IMG/VR virus record: IMGVR_UViG_3300001533_002283
Span: 1 to 64,000 of that record
DNA: 64,000 nucleotides
Reading direction: 5' to 3' (one strand)
Source: a virus
Shown: positions 3,218-55,959 of the stretch, in pieces
Layout: each line of letters starts with the position of its first letter
Position numbering within the stretch: the first letter of the stretch is position 1
The notes under the pieces: model-generated
Database searches by the model: none
The model's input: only the letters and a program-made list of their open reading frames with translations
Told to the model about the DNA's origin: nothing
Made by a program: the position numbers and the translations under genes

Positions 3218-3667
3218 TTACTCCTTCTCCGCCACAAGTTGACCCTTGGTCGGTTTGATATCCGCACAGAGATTGTAAATGGTGGTGTAACTCGTGCCGA
3301 ATTCGTCAGCAAGGGCGGTGATCTGCTCGCCCTTGGCGCGGCGCGTGCGGATGGTCTCTTTTTCGTCGTCGCTGAGGCTCACGCGTTCCTTGCGGGGAAG
3401 GCCGGTGGACGAAACACGGACCTTGGAAAGGTCATTATCCTTGATAATGGCAAGGAAGCCATCACTAAGGGTCTTATACATGGCGTTGCGGTTGGCGGTC
3501 TCCGTGTCTCCGTGCTCGCGAGCCTCGGCGGTAATTCGCTTGGCATACTCAAGCGGGCTTTCCTTGGTAGGCTCAAACGCAGGCACGACGTAGGCGGGCG
3601 CATCGGCGAGGGTTTCAACAGACTTTGCGAGGGAGCGGAGGGCGGAGGCAATGGTTTTCTTGTTCAT
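3218..3667 (-). CDS. HTH (resolvase/transposase-like) domain protein, GC-rich
   Basis: 149 aa from ATG at 3667. I chose this start over one five codons upstream because AACACC lies two bases before it, matching the start context of other genes here. The C-terminal part (KGEQITALADEFGTSYTTIY) reads as a helix-turn-helix of the Hin-recombinase or transposase type, so DNA binding is likely. No catalytic domain is visible. The base composition is clearly more GC-rich than all neighbours, which leaves several shadow frames open and suggests recent transfer. It sits beside the repeat zone at 3.7-4.6 kb, so it could bind there (inference). Confidence 0.7.
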   Translation of the reverse strand: MNKKTIASALRSLAKSVETLADAPAYVVPAFEPTKESPLEYAKRITAEAREHGDTETANRNAMYKTLSDGFLAIIKDNDLSKVRVSSTGLPRKERVSLSDDEKETIRTRRAKGEQITALADEFGTSYTTIYNLCADIKPTKGQLVAEKE

Positions 3668-4210
3668 ATGGTGTTTTCCCATTTAACGCGGCAGGGGAGC
3701 GGAGAGACTCGGCTTTAATGCCTTGCGGCTTGTCTCTCTTTAACCGTTTGCCGGACGAATCCGGCGAGTGAGTTGGATTGTGTCGTCGGGCGTCGTGCCT
3801 TTCAACAGTTACGAATCAATCACTTCGCCTTTTTCTCGTCAAATAAAACTTTGTTTTTTCTTTAGAGTTTTTTCTAAGCATTGAAACGCAACGACTTATG
3901 AAAGCACCAAAAAGAGACGTTTGCGCGGTCAGTGTGCTCGAAAACGTGTCAAACACATAATGTGTAAAAGGAATGTAAAAAAGCCTGGGTGCCTGGGGCG
4001 AGTTTTTCCGCATCCCTTAGTGTGACGCGCGGGGGTGCGTGCGTGCGCGCGGATATGAAAGCGGAGCACAAAGGCAAATTTATTCATCTAGGTAATTCTA
4101 CGTAGAGAAAAAGTGAAAATTGGAGATTGACGGGAAACGGCAAACCATGCCAGAATTTACCCACGTTGAAAAACAGTGACCCTATGGGGCGGGGAAATAG
4201 AGGGGTATGT

Positions 4211-6477: not shown

Positions 6478-6505
6478 AGAATGACAGGGTGAGGGGAAAA
6501 AGCAA
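6478..6505 (-). promoter_or_regulatory. Probable promoter for the JAB gene
   Basis: TTGCTT, 16 bp, CATTCT; the -10 box is weak but the spacing and the upstream AAAACCCC match the other promoters here. Confidence 0.45.
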
Positions 6506-6547
6506 GGGGTTTTATAGGGATTTTTTAAAAAATATAAAATAAAAGGA

Positions 6548-7038: not shown

Positions 7039-7066
7039 AAGATACCACTTTGCGGGGCGAAAGCAA
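7039..7066 (-). promoter_or_regulatory. Promoter, consensus type
   Basis: TTGCTT (7061-7066), 16 bp, TATCTT (7039-7044), preceded by AAAACCCC. It drives the gene at 6598-6990. Confidence 0.75.
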
Positions 7067-7129
7067 GGGGTTTTATTCATATTTTGAATATTTAATAGCC
7101 AATTTTTTACTATAATTTAATAATATGCC

Positions 7130-7618
7130 ATGTTATCAAAAAGTGAAGATGAGATCAATGATATGCTCGCGGCCTATATTCAAAATTGCAAAAGAAGGCC
7201 CGCCGTCAGGGAATTTAAATTTTTGTCAGGACAAAGGGCTGATTTAATCTCTTACGATAGAGACGGAAATCTTATTTTAATCGAATCTAAAAAACTCGGC
7301 GACCCAAAACACCTGAAGCAATCAATAGAATCAGCTTTTGGACAAATCGTGCGTTATTGCTCGCAGAATACTTTATTAAGCCTTAATAATTCAACAATTA
7401 ATATTATTTCTGTTGACCCACCACCTTATCACCAAGTTATGAGTTATGTTAACTTTTTACGCGACAGTTTCGGGGTTCAAGTTGTTTTTTTATGCCATCA
7501 AGATATAGAAAAAATAGAAGATAGGCTTTTCCAAGGCTATAAAATCAACAAAAAGTTTATCTCCTTTCTTTCCAAAGGAAATGTCAACGCGCGGAAAATT
7601 GTATTCCAGTCAGAGTAA
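7130..7618 (+). CDS. PD-(D/E)XK-type nuclease, plus-strand island
   Basis: 162 aa. RADLISYDRDGNLILIESKK gives the Asp ... Glu-x-Lys core of the PD-(D/E)XK fold, preceded by VREFKF. The later helix AFGQIVRYCSQN is the usual companion helix. This fold occurs in restriction enzymes, VSR, Holliday-junction resolvases and NERD-like proteins; the exact substrate cannot be read here. It is the first gene of a three-gene plus-strand island, opposite to nearly all neighbours. TATAAT lies about 20 bp upstream of the start. Confidence 0.7.
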   Translation: MLSKSEDEINDMLAAYIQNCKRRPAVREFKFLSGQRADLISYDRDGNLILIESKKLGDPKHLKQSIESAFGQIVRYCSQNTLLSLNNSTINIISVDPPPYHQVMSYVNFLRDSFGVQVVFLCHQDIEKIEDRLFQGYKINKKFISFLSKGNVNARKIVFQSE

Positions 7619-7682
7619 GTGTTTTTTTCTTTTGTTTTATAGGGACCACCTTCCATCCTATACCTCAATACTGTCCCCTTTC

Positions 7683-7711
7683 TTGACAGTTTGGCGGCCA
7701 GATTGAATAAT
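7683..7711 (+). promoter_or_regulatory. Promoter for the palm-polymerase gene
   Basis: TTGACA (7683-7688), 17 bp, AATAAT (7706-7711). It overlaps a possible TTG start at 7691, which is why the start is placed at the ATG at 7721. Confidence 0.65.
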
Positions 7712-7720
7712 AAGGGTAAT

Positions 7721-9130
7721 ATGGCGAGAAAAGGCATCAACTTATGGCGACAGGTTAAAACTAGAAATTTATTTGTTCTCAAGTTGGAGTGTATGGGGAT
7801 TCCAGAGAATCGTATAAAAAACACAATAGCTATTCTTCACCAGATAGTATCCCTTAAAGAGTATAATAAAAAAGGTGACAAGGTTTTTCTGAATAATGAT
7901 GGGAATGAGGTTTTTAGATTTTCTAGTAGAATTTTTAAAAAATATTTAAAAGATGATTATCCATTTATAGTTAAAACCCTGATCGACAATGGATACTTAT
8001 ATAATCACGAGTATTTTTCAATCGACGCCAAGATTCCCAAGGGTTACGGCCCAACGCATAAACTCCTATACGAAATTGAAAATTTCCAAGAGGAATATCT
8101 TAACGACTTAATCAAATCAAAATATGGAATCGCCCTCTATAAAGCCAATAAAGAGAAAAATTCGCAAATTCTTAAAACCCATGATTTTGATGACCCATTG
8201 GTTAAAAACGAATACATGGGCGAAACCGAAATAGATTTTTACACCAATTGGCCGAAAATTGAAAGGATGTTAAATCTCTTACATAAGAACAAAGCTGTTT
8301 CTAATCGAGGACATATCATAAATCTTATAGAGGGCGAGATTGATAAGAAGCGGAAAAGGAATGAGAAAACAGGCAGAATCTACACAACGTTTAATTGTAT
8401 CTCAAATATAATCCGGCGGCAGGTTAAAATCGCGGGAAAAAGTTTTGCCTTAGATATTGATATGCGGGCGTGCCATCTTTCGTTTCTAGCCGATTACCTA
8501 TATCATAAAAAGCCTAGTGAAAAACTGAGAGGGGAAAGGGATTTATGGAGAAGTATTTTTGAGAAAGACCAAGACCCGCGCGAATGGTTGGGTGTTCAGG
8601 CTGGGATAAAAGGAAGTGATTCCATATCACAAAAAAGAAAAAAACGGTTTATGAATAGCTGGATCAATGGCGGGAAATATCCGGTTTTTGATAATTACAT
8701 GAGAAAACACTGGTCGGTTCTTTATAAGGCGTGGAAAGGGTTAAATTGCAAGGTGGTAGGCAATGATATATCCCTTCACTTTGAATCGGTAATTTTCCGC
8801 TCTGATTGGCTTATAGAGCTACAAAACAAACACGATGTCGTCGCCCTCTCTACTCATGACGGCTTTTGCGTTTTTGGCGATAAAACGGCGGCAAACATAT
8901 TCTTTGAAGAGTTTCAAACGAAGGCGCGCGAGATTGCGGGGTGGGGAGTATATTTTACCAAAGACGAAGGAATCGAATTGAATATCAAAAAAGAATTGCA
9001 ATCTTTTGACATTAAGGCTTTAGACTTTTGTGATAAAAATTTACCAGAAAGGGCAGATGAGATTAAGTCTCAAAAGGAAGAATACCTCAATCGACTTGAC
9101 AAAAATGGGGTAAAACCTGATTATTCTTAA
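7721..9130 (+). CDS. Family-A-like (single-subunit) polymerase palm protein
   Basis: 469 aa from ATG 7721. The C-terminal half has three palm motifs in order. Motif A is ALDIDMRACHLSFLADY (Asp about 245). Motif B-like is KRKKRFMNSWINGG (about 305-318). Motif C is LSTHDGFCVFGD (His-Asp about 379-380). The lead-in GRIYTTFNCISNIIRRQV also matches a group of plasmid and prophage proteins related to DNA polymerase A or T7-type RNA polymerase palms. No 3'-5' exonuclease domain is visible and the N-terminal 240 residues are unassigned. It could be a replicase, primase-polymerase or RNA polymerase. It is separated by about 100 bp from the nuclease gene and abuts the next gene (TAAATG). Confidence 0.7.
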   Translation: MARKGINLWRQVKTRNLFVLKLECMGIPENRIKNTIAILHQIVSLKEYNKKGDKVFLNNDGNEVFRFSSRIFKKYLKDDYPFIVKTLIDNGYLYNHEYFSIDAKIPKGYGPTHKLLYEIENFQEEYLNDLIKSKYGIALYKANKEKNSQILKTHDFDDPLVKNEYMGETEIDFYTNWPKIERMLNLLHKNKAVSNRGHIINLIEGEIDKKRKRNEKTGRIYTTFNCISNIIRRQVKIAGKSFALDIDMRACHLSFLADYLYHKKPSEKLRGERDLWRSIFEKDQDPREWLGVQAGIKGSDSISQKRKKRFMNSWINGGKYPVFDNYMRKHWSVLYKAWKGLNCKVVGNDISLHFESVIFRSDWLIELQNKHDVVALSTHDGFCVFGDKTAANIFFEEFQTKAREIAGWGVYFTKDEGIELNIKKELQSFDIKALDFCDKNLPERADEIKSQKEEYLNRLDKNGVKPDYS

Positions 9131-9478
9131 ATGACAAAGAAGATCAAAGCGTATTATATTGAAGACGTGGACTTCATGGCTCGCGTTGATTTTAATGGGA
9201 AAGTCTTTTTTGAATATGAGTATGATGAGAACAATCCTTGTATAAAGGCGATGACTCATAAAAAGTTGGTAACGATTGAGGATGGTTTTGATGATGGGGA
9301 TTTAACCGTGATGGAGCATTATCGGAATATTCTTCAAGCTTCATCGGTGGCGAAAGATGAGATTAAGAGAATTTATAACAAGTTATCTCCAATTGGGAAA
9401 AGGCGCGCGGATGGTGAATTAAAAAGAATCGAAGAGATGGTCGGAGAATATCTGAAAAGTTTTAAAAAAAGTGAATAA
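9131..9478 (+). CDS. Small acidic hypothetical protein of the plus-strand island, 115 aa
   Basis: The start ATG directly follows the stop of the polymerase-like gene, so the two are translationally linked. Asp/Glu-rich first half (IEDVDFMARVDFNG, YEYDENNP), helical second half ending in a Lys-rich tail. No domain recognised. By position it is a likely partner or accessory of the palm protein (inference). Confidence 0.7.
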   Translation: MTKKIKAYYIEDVDFMARVDFNGKVFFEYEYDENNPCIKAMTHKKLVTIEDGFDDGDLTVMEHYRNILQASSVAKDEIKRIYNKLSPIGKRRADGELKRIEEMVGEYLKSFKKSE

Positions 9479-9484
9479 AAAAGC

Positions 9485-9658
9485 TTGTTTTCCCGCCTCA
9501 CTCTGCTATCTTTTACTCATCGAAGGGGCTTGCCAGCATTGCTCCCCCTGAAGAGTTGCGGAGATGAAACTCCTAGAGGTAGGGATTCGACCCTACGCGG
9601 ATTTTTTTAAGCGCGAGCCCGTTTGGATTAGTATAACATATTTTTTGATAAAACGCAA
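9485..9658. ncRNA. Structured element A with facing promoter-like boxes
   Basis: Plus-strand boxes are TTGTTT (9485-9490), 16 bp, TATCTT (9507-9512). Minus-strand boxes are TTGCGT (9653-9658), 17 bp, TATACT (9630-9635). Between them are a GGGG...CCCC stem, a GGAG-ATGAAA-CTCC hairpin and the perfect hairpin GTAGGGATTCGACCCTAC. The order and several loops are shared with element B at 10328-10490. The last hairpin is tRNA T-arm-like but has a 6-nt loop and no acceptor stem, so this is not a tRNA. Either strand, or both, could be the RNA. Confidence 0.5.
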
Positions 9659-9776
9659 GAGTTTTTTTAAAAAAATAAAAAAATGTTATAACGCAAAAAA
9701 TCCCCAACTGACATGTTTTTTATTACACGCCAGAAGGGGAAATATGTTATAAGATAAAATCTTTTAACTTAACATC
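9659..9776. other. Spacer, no gene seen
   Basis: AT-rich sequence containing an inverted match CCCC-AACTGAC...AGAAGGGG and two ATGTTATAA-like motifs. No ORF with start context. Confidence 0.4.
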
Positions 9777-10192: not shown

Positions 10193-10327
10193 TTGAGTGA
10201 GTTTCTTTTTTTGTGGTTGTTTATTGATTACCCCATTACCTTAACACCTTGCCCAAACAAATCAATCTTTTTTATTTAAATATTTTCATTCCTCTTTCGA
10301 CCAAACAAAACTTTTTTAAAAAAACTC
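10193..10327. other. Leader and spacer region
   Basis: Holds the AACCACA leader of the gene at 10004-10192; otherwise AT-rich with a TTTTTTAAAAAAA tract also found beside element A. Confidence 0.35.
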
Positions 10328-10490
10328 TTGTAATTTTTATCCAGCCTGCTACCTTTTAACCATCGCAAAGGCTTATTCCTTTTGCTGAGTTGAGGGATAA
10401 AACCCAAGAGGTAGGGATTCGACCCTGCAAGTGTTTTGCCGCGCGCGGGAACATTTGGAAAAGGGTAGCACAAAATTTTATAAAAGTCAA
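10328..10490. ncRNA. Structured element B, paralogue of element A
   Basis: Plus-strand boxes TTGTAA (10328-10333), 16 bp, TACCTT (10350-10355). Minus-strand boxes TTGACT (10485-10490), 17 bp, TACCCT (10462-10467). It shares with element A the CATCG start, a first stem (GCAAAGG...CCTTTTGC), CTGA...GTTG, a GGG-ATAAAA-CCC hairpin and AGAGGTAGGGATTCGACCCT. Stem sequences differ while pairing is kept, which supports an RNA structure. Confidence 0.55.
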
Positions 10491-10928
10491 GAGTTTTTTT
10501 TAAAAAAGTTTCTTTTCCCTATTTTATTGTTGCAAATCAAGATTTTATAACATATGGAGATAATTAACCATAATGGGCGAAATCGGGGTATTATATCAGA
10601 TTATAGGCCAAAATCAAGCTATTTTTCCCATTTTATTTTACCCTTTTATTTCAATTTTTATTCCCAAATCTGTATAACACCCTGTTCTTTTAACACTCCC
10701 GGCTCTTTCAATCCTTAACATGACAGGCTATCATGCCTTAACATGACAGTTCGAGAAAAAGAAAAGGTAGATTTAAAAAAACTGAATCAATTCACGAATC
10801 AATGCTGAACCCTGTTATTATTCAGGGTAGAAAAATAAGCGGAGGTAAAACTTCACCTATACCTTAAAACGGTTCTATTTTTAGAACGACGGTTTTAGGG
10901 AAAAATTGTTTCTATTTTTATAAAAAAC
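10491..10928. other. Gene-free spacer with hairpins
   Basis: No ORF supported. It contains ACCCTG-TTATTATT-CAGGGT (about 10809-10829) and an inverted repeat AAAACGGTTCT...AGAAC(G)ACGGTTTTA (10865-10898) that may terminate minus-strand or plus-strand transcripts, plus the direct repeat listed next. Confidence 0.45.
10713..10749. repeat. Two exact 14-bp direct repeats, 23-bp period
   Basis: CCTTAACATGACAG at 10713-10726 and 10736-10749. The spacing is about two helical turns, as for a tandem operator. No adjacent regulator gene is identified. Confidence 0.55.
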
Positions 10929-40081: not shown

Positions 40082-40654
40082 TTAACCGAAATATTTTTGA
40101 TAAAACTGATTAACAATTGGGCGGAGAGTTACAAGTGAAGGATCGGTGTGCCAAAAGATATGTTCGTCGGCTAATTTTGCAACTTCTGGCCCGTGGATTT
40201 TTTCCTCGTCGGTCGGTTCTGGCGCGCCTTCTCGATTAATATTAACAAATAACATACTCTCTCCATACATTTTCTTAAAATAATGATACTCGTTGAGATG
40301 CCTTAAATCTGTAAGAACATAAATAACATCATTGTTTGCCGTCATGGAATCATAAATGTCAATTTGTTCAAACGTTTCCTTACACCAAAAATTAATATCG
40401 ACCGAACGGGCAAGTCGGCCAGCCTCAATCAACAACGGACGAAACATTTCTTTTTCTTCCGGGGTGAGTTTTTCAGGCATTTTGCCAAAAACATTAAAAC
40501 AGAACCCGCTCATTTTAGATTTTAACGAGTCAGCAAGGGCCACTCTTTTAAAATTAGGATTAAGTTCTTTTAAGAGAGAAAAGAAAGTATCTTTACCTGT
40601 TTGTCTGCAAGTTCCTAAAGTCAAAAGTTTAATTTTATTTTTGTTGTTAATCAT
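40082..40654 (-). CDS. Deoxynucleoside monophosphate kinase-like protein
   Basis: 190 aa. P-loop LLTLGTCRQTGKDTFFSLL near the N-terminus, then RVALADSLKSKM and RSVDINFWC, and a late YVLTDLRHLNEYH. This layout fits the T4 gp1-type dNMP kinase family, which phosphorylates dTMP, dGMP and modified dCMP. It probably feeds the phage dNTP pool with dUTPase (61502-62095). Confidence 0.8.
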   Translation of the reverse strand: MINNKNKIKLLTLGTCRQTGKDTFFSLLKELNPNFKRVALADSLKSKMSGFCFNVFGKMPEKLTPEEKEMFRPLLIEAGRLARSVDINFWCKETFEQIDIYDSMTANNDVIYVLTDLRHLNEYHYFKKMYGESMLFVNINREGAPEPTDEEKIHGPEVAKLADEHIFWHTDPSLVTLRPIVNQFYQKYFG

Positions 40655-55569: not shown

Positions 55570-55959
55570 TCAAATTCCCTTCGGTATTAAATGAAAACAA
55601 TCTCGCGGCCAAGCGTGATAAAGGGCAAAATATTTGTCGGAATAAATCTTCACCTGCTCTTCCTTATTTTTCGCAAAGAGTTTTAGTCTATCAATTTCTT
55701 GTCTCGCAACCTCCGGCGCGAGTTCAATTACTCGTTTGCGGGCTAAATCCAGCGGAGCATGTCCTTCAACTGCATAACTTGTCCCACCCGAATAACAATT
55801 TTCGGTCCAACCAGTCAAGATTTGATCGGCGACATGTTTAATGATCGTGTCTTGACAAGCAAGGGTTTCAATCAATTCGATTTTATCTTCGGGAGATAGT
55901 GAATCAAGAAGATTGGAAATGTCGATGGTTAGTTGGCCTTTATTTAGTTTAGCGTTCAT
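55570..55959 (-). CDS. Hypothetical protein, 129 aa
   Basis: MNAKLNKGQLTIDISNLLDSLSPED, CYSGGTSYAVEGHAPLDLARKRVIELAPEVARQEI; helical, of a kind seen repeatedly in phages and gut bacteria. Role unknown. Confidence 0.7.
   Translation of the reverse strand: MNAKLNKGQLTIDISNLLDSLSPEDKIELIETLACQDTIIKHVADQILTGWTENCYSGGTSYAVEGHAPLDLARKRVIELAPEVARQEIDRLKLFAKNKEEQVKIYSDKYFALYHAWPRDCFHLIPKGI

What the first reader, a model, noticed from the sequence alone, without database searches (positions are those of the whole stretch)
7130..9478. Plus-strand island: PD-(D/E)XK nuclease, A-family-like palm protein and a small acidic protein
Every other accepted plus-strand gene is a recognised mobile gene (IS607 pair, LAGLIDADG, TnpB). 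This trio has its own TTGACA promoter, tight linkage (TAAATG) and a nuclease-plus-polymerase composition suited to replication or copying of a mobile element, or to defence. It lies next to the twin structured elements (9.5 and 10.3 kb), which could be its RNA or DNA substrates. I cannot place it in a known system.
Basis: partly seen in the sequence, partly recalled or inferred. Interest (0 to 1): 0.7.

Follow-up and report, generated by a model that had tools for sequence, protein, structure and literature searches.

The report
Diverged phage accessory PolA-type polymerase pair
A large tailed phage carries, next to its normal DNA-copying machinery, a very diverged member of a recently described family of small Pol I-like polymerases (divPolA2) that travels with a small acidic protein; its job is unknown, and the neighbouring nuclease is probably not part of it.

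Summary
The three plus-strand ORFs are real coding genes. The window is part of a 172-kb phage record whose own replisome (DnaE-type Pol III, DnaB, DnaG-like primase) lies elsewhere on the minus strand. The palm protein is a remote relative of phrog_4756, the family published in 2024 as divPolA2: accessory A-family polymerases without exonuclease, role unknown. It keeps Pol I-type landmarks (TGR, motif A Asp, motif B Lys, motif C His-Asp). A family representative, modelled with this protein in the alignment, folds like Pol I. The same phage has a second, more typical copy at 110.7-112.0 kb. In the one near relative found, the palm gene is again followed by the small acidic protein, lies elsewhere relative to shared genes, and has no nuclease beside it. 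The unit is therefore palm plus acidic protein, not the trio. No terminal repeats or target duplication were found. The twin elements are two diverged promoter-plus-RNA-like copies on the other strand, with no demonstrated link. A by-product may be new: chromosomal members of the family sit next to site-specific recombinases (12 of 13 independent loci, 0 of 20 controls). Known family, new divergent variant, interesting context.

The parts
7721..9130 (+). divPolA2-like A-family palm protein (469 aa from ATG 7721; ORF open from TTG 7691)
   Evidence: ORF; coding; relation to phrog_4756/divPolA2; TGR, motif A Asp, motif B Lys and motif C His-Asp conserved in alignment A6
9131..9478 (+). small acidic protein (115 aa), conserved partner
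   Evidence: starts at the palm stop codon; homologue directly downstream of palm in L090, E 4e-8 in a search of all ORFs of both phages
7683..7711 (+). sigma70-type promoter-like match TTGACA-17-AATAAT of the palm gene; a CTGTC...GACAG inverted repeat overlaps the -35 box
   Evidence: the same layout precedes palm in L090; upstream similarity beyond most shuffles only (12 of 2000 reach it)
7130..7618 (+). PD-(D/E)XK-like nuclease ORF, neighbour, probably not part of the pair
   Evidence: D-x11-ExK seen directly; HSDR_N E 0.0024 and MmcB-like E 0.0036, both below cut-off; PADLOC PDC-S11 E 3e-4 over a fragment; no homologue beside L090 palm or in its record
9480..9690 (-). twin element 1: sigma70-like promoter plus short structured RNA-like stretch, convergent with the acidic gene
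   Evidence: neighbour only, no shown link
10291..10520 (-). twin element 2, diverged copy
   Evidence: 4 of 16 predicted pairs changed on both sides between the two copies

Best explanation
The palm gene encodes an accessory polymerase of the A-family fold, a strongly diverged relative of divPolA2 / phrog_4756. It is made in addition to the phage's C-family replicase and shows no recognisable proofreading domain. It most likely adds deoxynucleotides to a primer on a DNA template over short stretches, for example filling gaps left by recombination, integration or repair of mobile DNA; it does not copy the phage genome. The acidic protein encoded right after it is its conserved partner, possibly a DNA-mimicking or regulatory subunit. 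The pair has its own promoter-like site and moves as a unit. The upstream nuclease is an independent neighbour. Shown here by comparison: homology to the family, fold of a family member, conserved catalytic residues, the conserved pair, a different genomic place in a relative, presence of another complete replisome. Inferred: catalytic activity, DNA rather than RNA as product, role in recombination-linked synthesis, role of the acidic protein.
For: Profile-profile match to the family over the TGR-to-motif-A stretch (E 4e-5 and 1e-4 for one comparison); it ranks second of all ORFs of the phage under the family HMM, E 0.0069. Five residues are invariant in all 18 aligned proteins including this one and L090: R232, R246, D260, K302, D392 in L115 numbering. 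The model of family member L115 has pLDDT 78, above 90 in most of the palm; all 36 PDB matches at E<=1e-3 are A-family DNA polymerases, VIA Z 12-12.8 for Pol I-type enzymes. hhalign lines up GGR/TGR-R668, Q-N-x-P/LQNIP and D260/D705 of E. coli Pol I (weak, E 0.011). Own replisome: DnaE, DnaB, primase. Palm plus acidic in L090, at a different place relative to shared genes. The position five after the motif A Asp (steric gate E710 in Pol I, Gly in T7 RNA polymerase, from established knowledge) is His, H265 in the family and H252 here, which favours dNTPs. Chromosomal members sit next to recombinases.
Against: This protein itself has no match to Pfam DNA_pol_A or in a plain hmmscan of PHROGs to phrog_4756, and its own single-sequence model is useless; the fold is shown for a distant relative. 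Motif B Arg of the family (R298) is not conserved in the alignment that includes it. Mitochondrial RNA polymerase scores as high as Pol I (Z 12.8), so an RNA product is open, as the 2024 paper also says. The conserved pair rests on a single relative (L090), whose palm gene carries a frameshift. The recombinase neighbourhood was seen for chromosomal members, not for this phage locus.
Confidence: 0.6

Rival explanations
1. The palm protein is a phage RNA polymerase (T7/mitochondrial type) that transcribes particular phage genes or makes primers; the acidic protein would be a transcription partner.
For: Yeast mitochondrial RNA polymerase scores Z 12.8, tied with DNA polymerases; the 2024 paper considers this for divPolA2; RNA polymerases of this type are A-family relatives.
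Against: All 36 Foldseek PDB matches at E<=1e-3 are DNA polymerases; bulky His at the steric-gate position; Pol I-like TGR and Q-N-x-P stretch.
Confidence: 0.2
2. The three genes form one nuclease-polymerase system (anti-phage defence, or an element that cuts and copies itself).
For: Same strand, close spacing; nuclease-like small ORFs also occur within 0.4-0.6 kb of two other divPolA2 genes (L109:5632-6147, L089:10456-11010; pattern seen by eye).
Against: No nuclease beside L090 palm or in its record; the two other ORFs are unrelated to this nuclease by BLASTP and to each other, without Pfam support; the promoter-like site lies between nuclease and palm; no PADLOC system; no terminal repeats or duplication.
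Confidence: 0.08
3. A degenerate or non-catalytic palm protein kept as a DNA-binding regulator (for instance a replication-control or anti-host factor), with the acidic protein as inhibitor.
For: Very diverged; motif B Arg not conserved; in several Vibrio and Aeromonas phages a small HTH gene precedes the family member, as in regulated units.
Against: Catalytic Asp of motifs A and C and motif B Lys invariant in all 18; both L090 and this gene keep them at 51% identity.
Confidence: 0.1

Closest known systems
divPolA2 (Virol J 2024, PMC11348598), = phrog_4756
   Same: A-family palm with motifs A, B and C, no recognisable 3'-5' exonuclease domain, accessory to a regular DNA polymerase, variable neighbourhood, more than one copy per phage; the same phage carries a typical copy at 110749-112044
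   Different: This copy is too diverged for the PHROG profile, has a Lys-rich motif B without the family Arg, and a dedicated acidic protein right behind it; host phage has a C-family replicase, barbaviruses a B-family one
DNA polymerase I (family A; E. coli PolA, Bst, apicoplast Pol)
   Same: Palm fold (shown for a family member), TGR Arg, motif A Asp, motif B Lys, motif C His-Asp
   Different: Shorter, no exonuclease domain recognised, His instead of Glu at the steric-gate position
divPolA1 (same paper)
   Same: Accessory A-family polymerase in 155-190 kb phages
   Different: divPolA1 keeps an inactivated exonuclease domain and a replication neighbourhood according to the paper; not compared by sequence here
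HSDR_N / MmcB-like PD-(D/E)XK nucleases
   Same: D-x11-ExK of ORF 7130-7618
   Different: Only below-threshold partial matches; no ATPase or restriction partner beside it

Membership tests
divPolA2 / phrog_4756 | Detected by the family profile | tested here: inconclusive
   hmmscan PHROGs no hit to phrog_4756; family HMM of 24 members E 0.0069, second of all phage ORFs; hhalign E 4e-5 to 1e-4, probability 57-69%
divPolA2 / phrog_4756 | Catalytic palm residues of motifs A, B and C | tested here: met
   D247, a motif B Lys, H379-D380 aligned with family invariants; motif B Arg replaced or not aligned
divPolA2 / phrog_4756 | Additional to a regular replicative polymerase | tested here: met
   DnaE-type Pol III, DnaB and primase in the same record
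divPolA2 / phrog_4756 | No 3'-5' exonuclease domain | tested here: inconclusive
   469 aa with about 215 aa before the TGR motif and no Pfam hit; N-terminal part not folded reliably
divPolA2 / phrog_4756 | Variable gene neighbourhood | tested here: met
   Different position relative to shared genes in L102/L090; varied neighbours in phages
A-family DNA polymerase | Pfam PF00476 above cut-off | tested here: not met
   No match at E<=10 in the record
A-family DNA polymerase | Pol I palm fold | tested here: inconclusive
   Met for family member L115, not testable for this protein itself with the jobs left (model useless)
A-family DNA polymerase | Template-directed DNA synthesis | not testable with these tools
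   Needs an assay
Anti-phage defence system | Match to a described defence protein set | tested here: inconclusive
   Only partial PDC-S11 (nuclease, E 3e-4) and PDC-M34B (palm, E 0.008) hits, not one system
Transposon or self-contained mobile element | Terminal inverted repeats and target-site duplication around the genes | tested here: not met
PD-(D/E)XK nuclease | Catalytic D and ExK in the core | tested here: inconclusive
   Motif seen directly; profile hits below cut-off; no structure predicted

The most novel reading that the evidence does not exclude
divPolA2-type polymerases belong to the copying or gap-filling machinery of integrative mobile elements that use tyrosine integrases and serine recombinases; phage copies such as this pair are captured or hitch-hiking pieces of that machinery, here with a phage-specific acidic partner.
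Probability: 0.2. Interest if true: 0.6.

Novelty: new variant of a known kind. Interest (0 to 1): 0.4.

Why it matters
A family described in 2024 from phages, with 'repair polymerase or RNA polymerase' as the open question, gets a strongly diverged branch with a small partner gene, a second copy in the same phage, and a chromosomal branch (23 of 398 Pseudomonadota and 4 of 198 Bacteroidota genomes sampled) that sits beside site-specific recombinases. If the recombinase link holds, it points to a role in moving or repairing integrated DNA, and the acidic partner offers a simple handle for biochemistry.

Tried and rejected
Single-sequence scans for each of the three proteins in viral contigs and for the palm in genome contigs found no relative; tblastn in phages and plasmids gave nothing, or chance hits such as Brevibacillus phage Sundance, whose protein lacks the catalytic motifs. 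A hand-made motif A pattern then found L089 and L090. The palm was not found in 50 records that share the phage's DnaE (empty result without positive control). AlphaFold2 without alignment: pLDDT 34, discarded. A ten-member alignment was too diverse for a collection scan. TIR-like arms 7039-7085 / 9466-9512 rejected as chance. Twin element 1: no relative in phage records, and the twins were found only in this phage among the loci held. L090's downstream minus-strand hairpin was not shown to be homologous to the twins. Recombinase enrichment: profiles were built from some of the same loci, so only the 13 loci not used for building count (12 of 13 against 0 of 20).

Full report
What the window is. 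The window is bases 1-64000 of a 172,181-base virus record. The rest of the record encodes terminase, tape measure, ribonucleotide reductase, a DnaE-type DNA polymerase III, DnaB helicase and a DnaG-like primase, so it is a large tailed phage with its own C-family replisome. Eighty relatives by DnaE were found in IMG/VR.

The observation. The three plus-strand ORFs exist at the given coordinates and each looks coding in its own frame only. Their G+C (35-37%) is a little below the neighbouring minus-strand genes. The palm ORF probably starts at ATG 7721. The TTGACA promoter-like match (11 of 12) lies at 7683-7711, between the nuclease and the palm gene. The palm stop and the acidic start are adjacent (TAAATG).

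Finding relatives. Routine searches failed: no Pfam, PHROG, NCBIfam or PADLOC assignment for the palm protein, no phage or plasmid relative by tblastn. A degenerate DNA pattern for the motif hDhDh[KR]xC[HQ] found two loci in IMG/VR. L090 is a near relative (51% identity in the catalytic half, 44% in the N-terminal half); its reading frame is broken near a run of A. L089 is a distant one. L089 led by tblastn to 150 phage records (Rheinheimera barbaviruses, Vibrio, Aeromonas, Pseudoalteromonas); the eight proteins tested all match phrog_4756, 'unknown function'.

Link of the palm protein to that family. Profile-profile comparison gives E 4e-5 and 1e-4 over the stretch from GR-[FY] to motif A, probability 57-69%. 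With an HMM of 24 members, this protein is second among all ORFs of the phage, after a typical member at record position 110749-112044. Motif C (STHDGF) and a motif B-like KRxxxNSWINGG stretch align at the expected places. In an alignment of 18 proteins that includes this one and L090, five residues are invariant: the Arg of GGR/TGR, a second Arg, the motif A Asp, a motif B Lys and the motif C Asp.

Fold. The protein alone could not be modelled. Family member L115, modelled with the 18-sequence alignment, reached pLDDT 78, above 90 in most of the palm. Foldseek found 36 PDB chains at E<=1e-3, all A-family DNA polymerases; VIA-align gives Z 12.8 for apicoplast Pol, 12.3 for Bst Pol I and 12.8 for yeast mitochondrial RNA polymerase. 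hhalign against E. coli PolA lines up GGR with TGR668, the QNxP stretch with LQNIP and D260 with D705, E 0.011, while 30 shuffles of PolA gave much lower probabilities. The N-terminal third is not tested.

Prior knowledge. The family was described in 2024 as divPolA2 (PMC11348598): accessory, no exonuclease, unrelated N-terminal domain, variable neighbourhood, up to three copies per phage, proposed to be a repair DNA polymerase or an RNA polymerase. So the kind is known; this copy is a far-diverged variant.

What the unit is. In L090 the palm gene is followed by a homologue of the acidic protein (27% identity, E 4e-8 among all ORFs of both phages), preceded by the same promoter layout with an inverted repeat at the -35 box (upstream similarity reached by 12 of 2000 shuffles), and there is no nuclease beside it or in the 77.9-kb record. 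The two phages share other genes (33-47% identity): in L102/L090 the pair lies between the homologues of window genes 40082-40654 and 55570-55959, here it lies at 7.7 kb. The pair therefore keeps together while its place changes, with the caution that one relative is one relative. No terminal repeats or target duplication were found.

The twin elements. They are two copies (72% identity over 109 nt) on the minus strand, each with a sigma70-like promoter followed by a short stretch with a constant GGGTCGAATCCC hairpin and two hairpins whose stems differ in a paired way (4 of 16 pairs changed on both sides; single-sequence folding is not better than shuffles). They look like small phage RNAs of unknown family (no Rfam hit). 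Nothing ties them to the polymerase.

Context of the wider family. phrog_4756 is present in 23 of 398 Pseudomonadota and 4 of 198 Bacteroidota genomes. Around chromosomal members Pfam finds 11 resolvases and 11 phage integrases among 93 neighbouring ORFs, two of which come from the phage loci L109 and L089. With profiles for the two recombinase kinds, 12 of 13 loci not used to build the profiles have one within 6 kb, against 0 of 20 segments from the same genomes (Fisher p 4e-8). Aestuariispira (L119) has an integrase, a resolvase and an RNase H next to the polymerase. This suggests a role in mobile-element DNA, and is the most interesting by-product.

Mechanism. Most likely an accessory DNA polymerase filling short stretches during recombination or repair of mobile DNA, with the acidic protein as partner. 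Shown by comparison: family, fold of a relative, conserved catalytic residues, pair, separate replisome. Inferred: activity, DNA product, role.

Noticed in passing
L004:6749-8044 (record 110749-112044, plus strand, outside the window): A second, more typical divPolA2 protein (431 aa) in the same phage, followed by two small unknown ORFs (L004:8044-8505, 8507-8908).
   Followed up: partly
window 9480-9690 and 10291-10520, minus strand: Two diverged copies of a promoter plus short structured RNA-like element with a constant GGGTCGAATCCC hairpin; no Rfam or phage match.
   Followed up: partly
L156-L175, L117, L119, L120: Chromosomal divPolA2 genes lie next to tyrosine integrases and serine recombinases (12 of 13 independent loci, 0 of 20 controls).
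   Followed up: partly
L119:6765-7247: RNase H gene directly downstream of a chromosomal divPolA2 gene, with an integrase after it.
   Followed up: no
L095:3435-3698, L096:3155-3442, L106:3639-3926, L097:2928-3149: Small HTH (Cro/C1 or HigA-like) gene directly upstream of divPolA2 in several Vibrio and Aeromonas phages.
   Followed up: no
L109:5632-6147 and L089:10456-11010: Small ORFs with a possible PD-(D/E)XK pattern near two other divPolA2 genes, unrelated to each other and to the window nuclease.
   Followed up: partly
window 3218-3682, minus strand: Gene with 57% G+C in a 38% G+C window, with a resolvase-type HTH; looks recently acquired.
   Followed up: no
window 6490-6524 and 7051-7085: Repeated AAAGCAAGGGGTTTTAT motif, reads as a shared minus-strand promoter sequence of small phage genes.
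   Followed up: no
L002:7391-8605 and L002:12458-13858: LAGLIDADG ORFs sit within the DnaE and DnaB/primase gene clusters of the phage.
   Followed up: no
L090:3640-3720: The palm gene of the relative is split by a frameshift near an A run; sequencing error or decay not distinguished.
   Followed up: no
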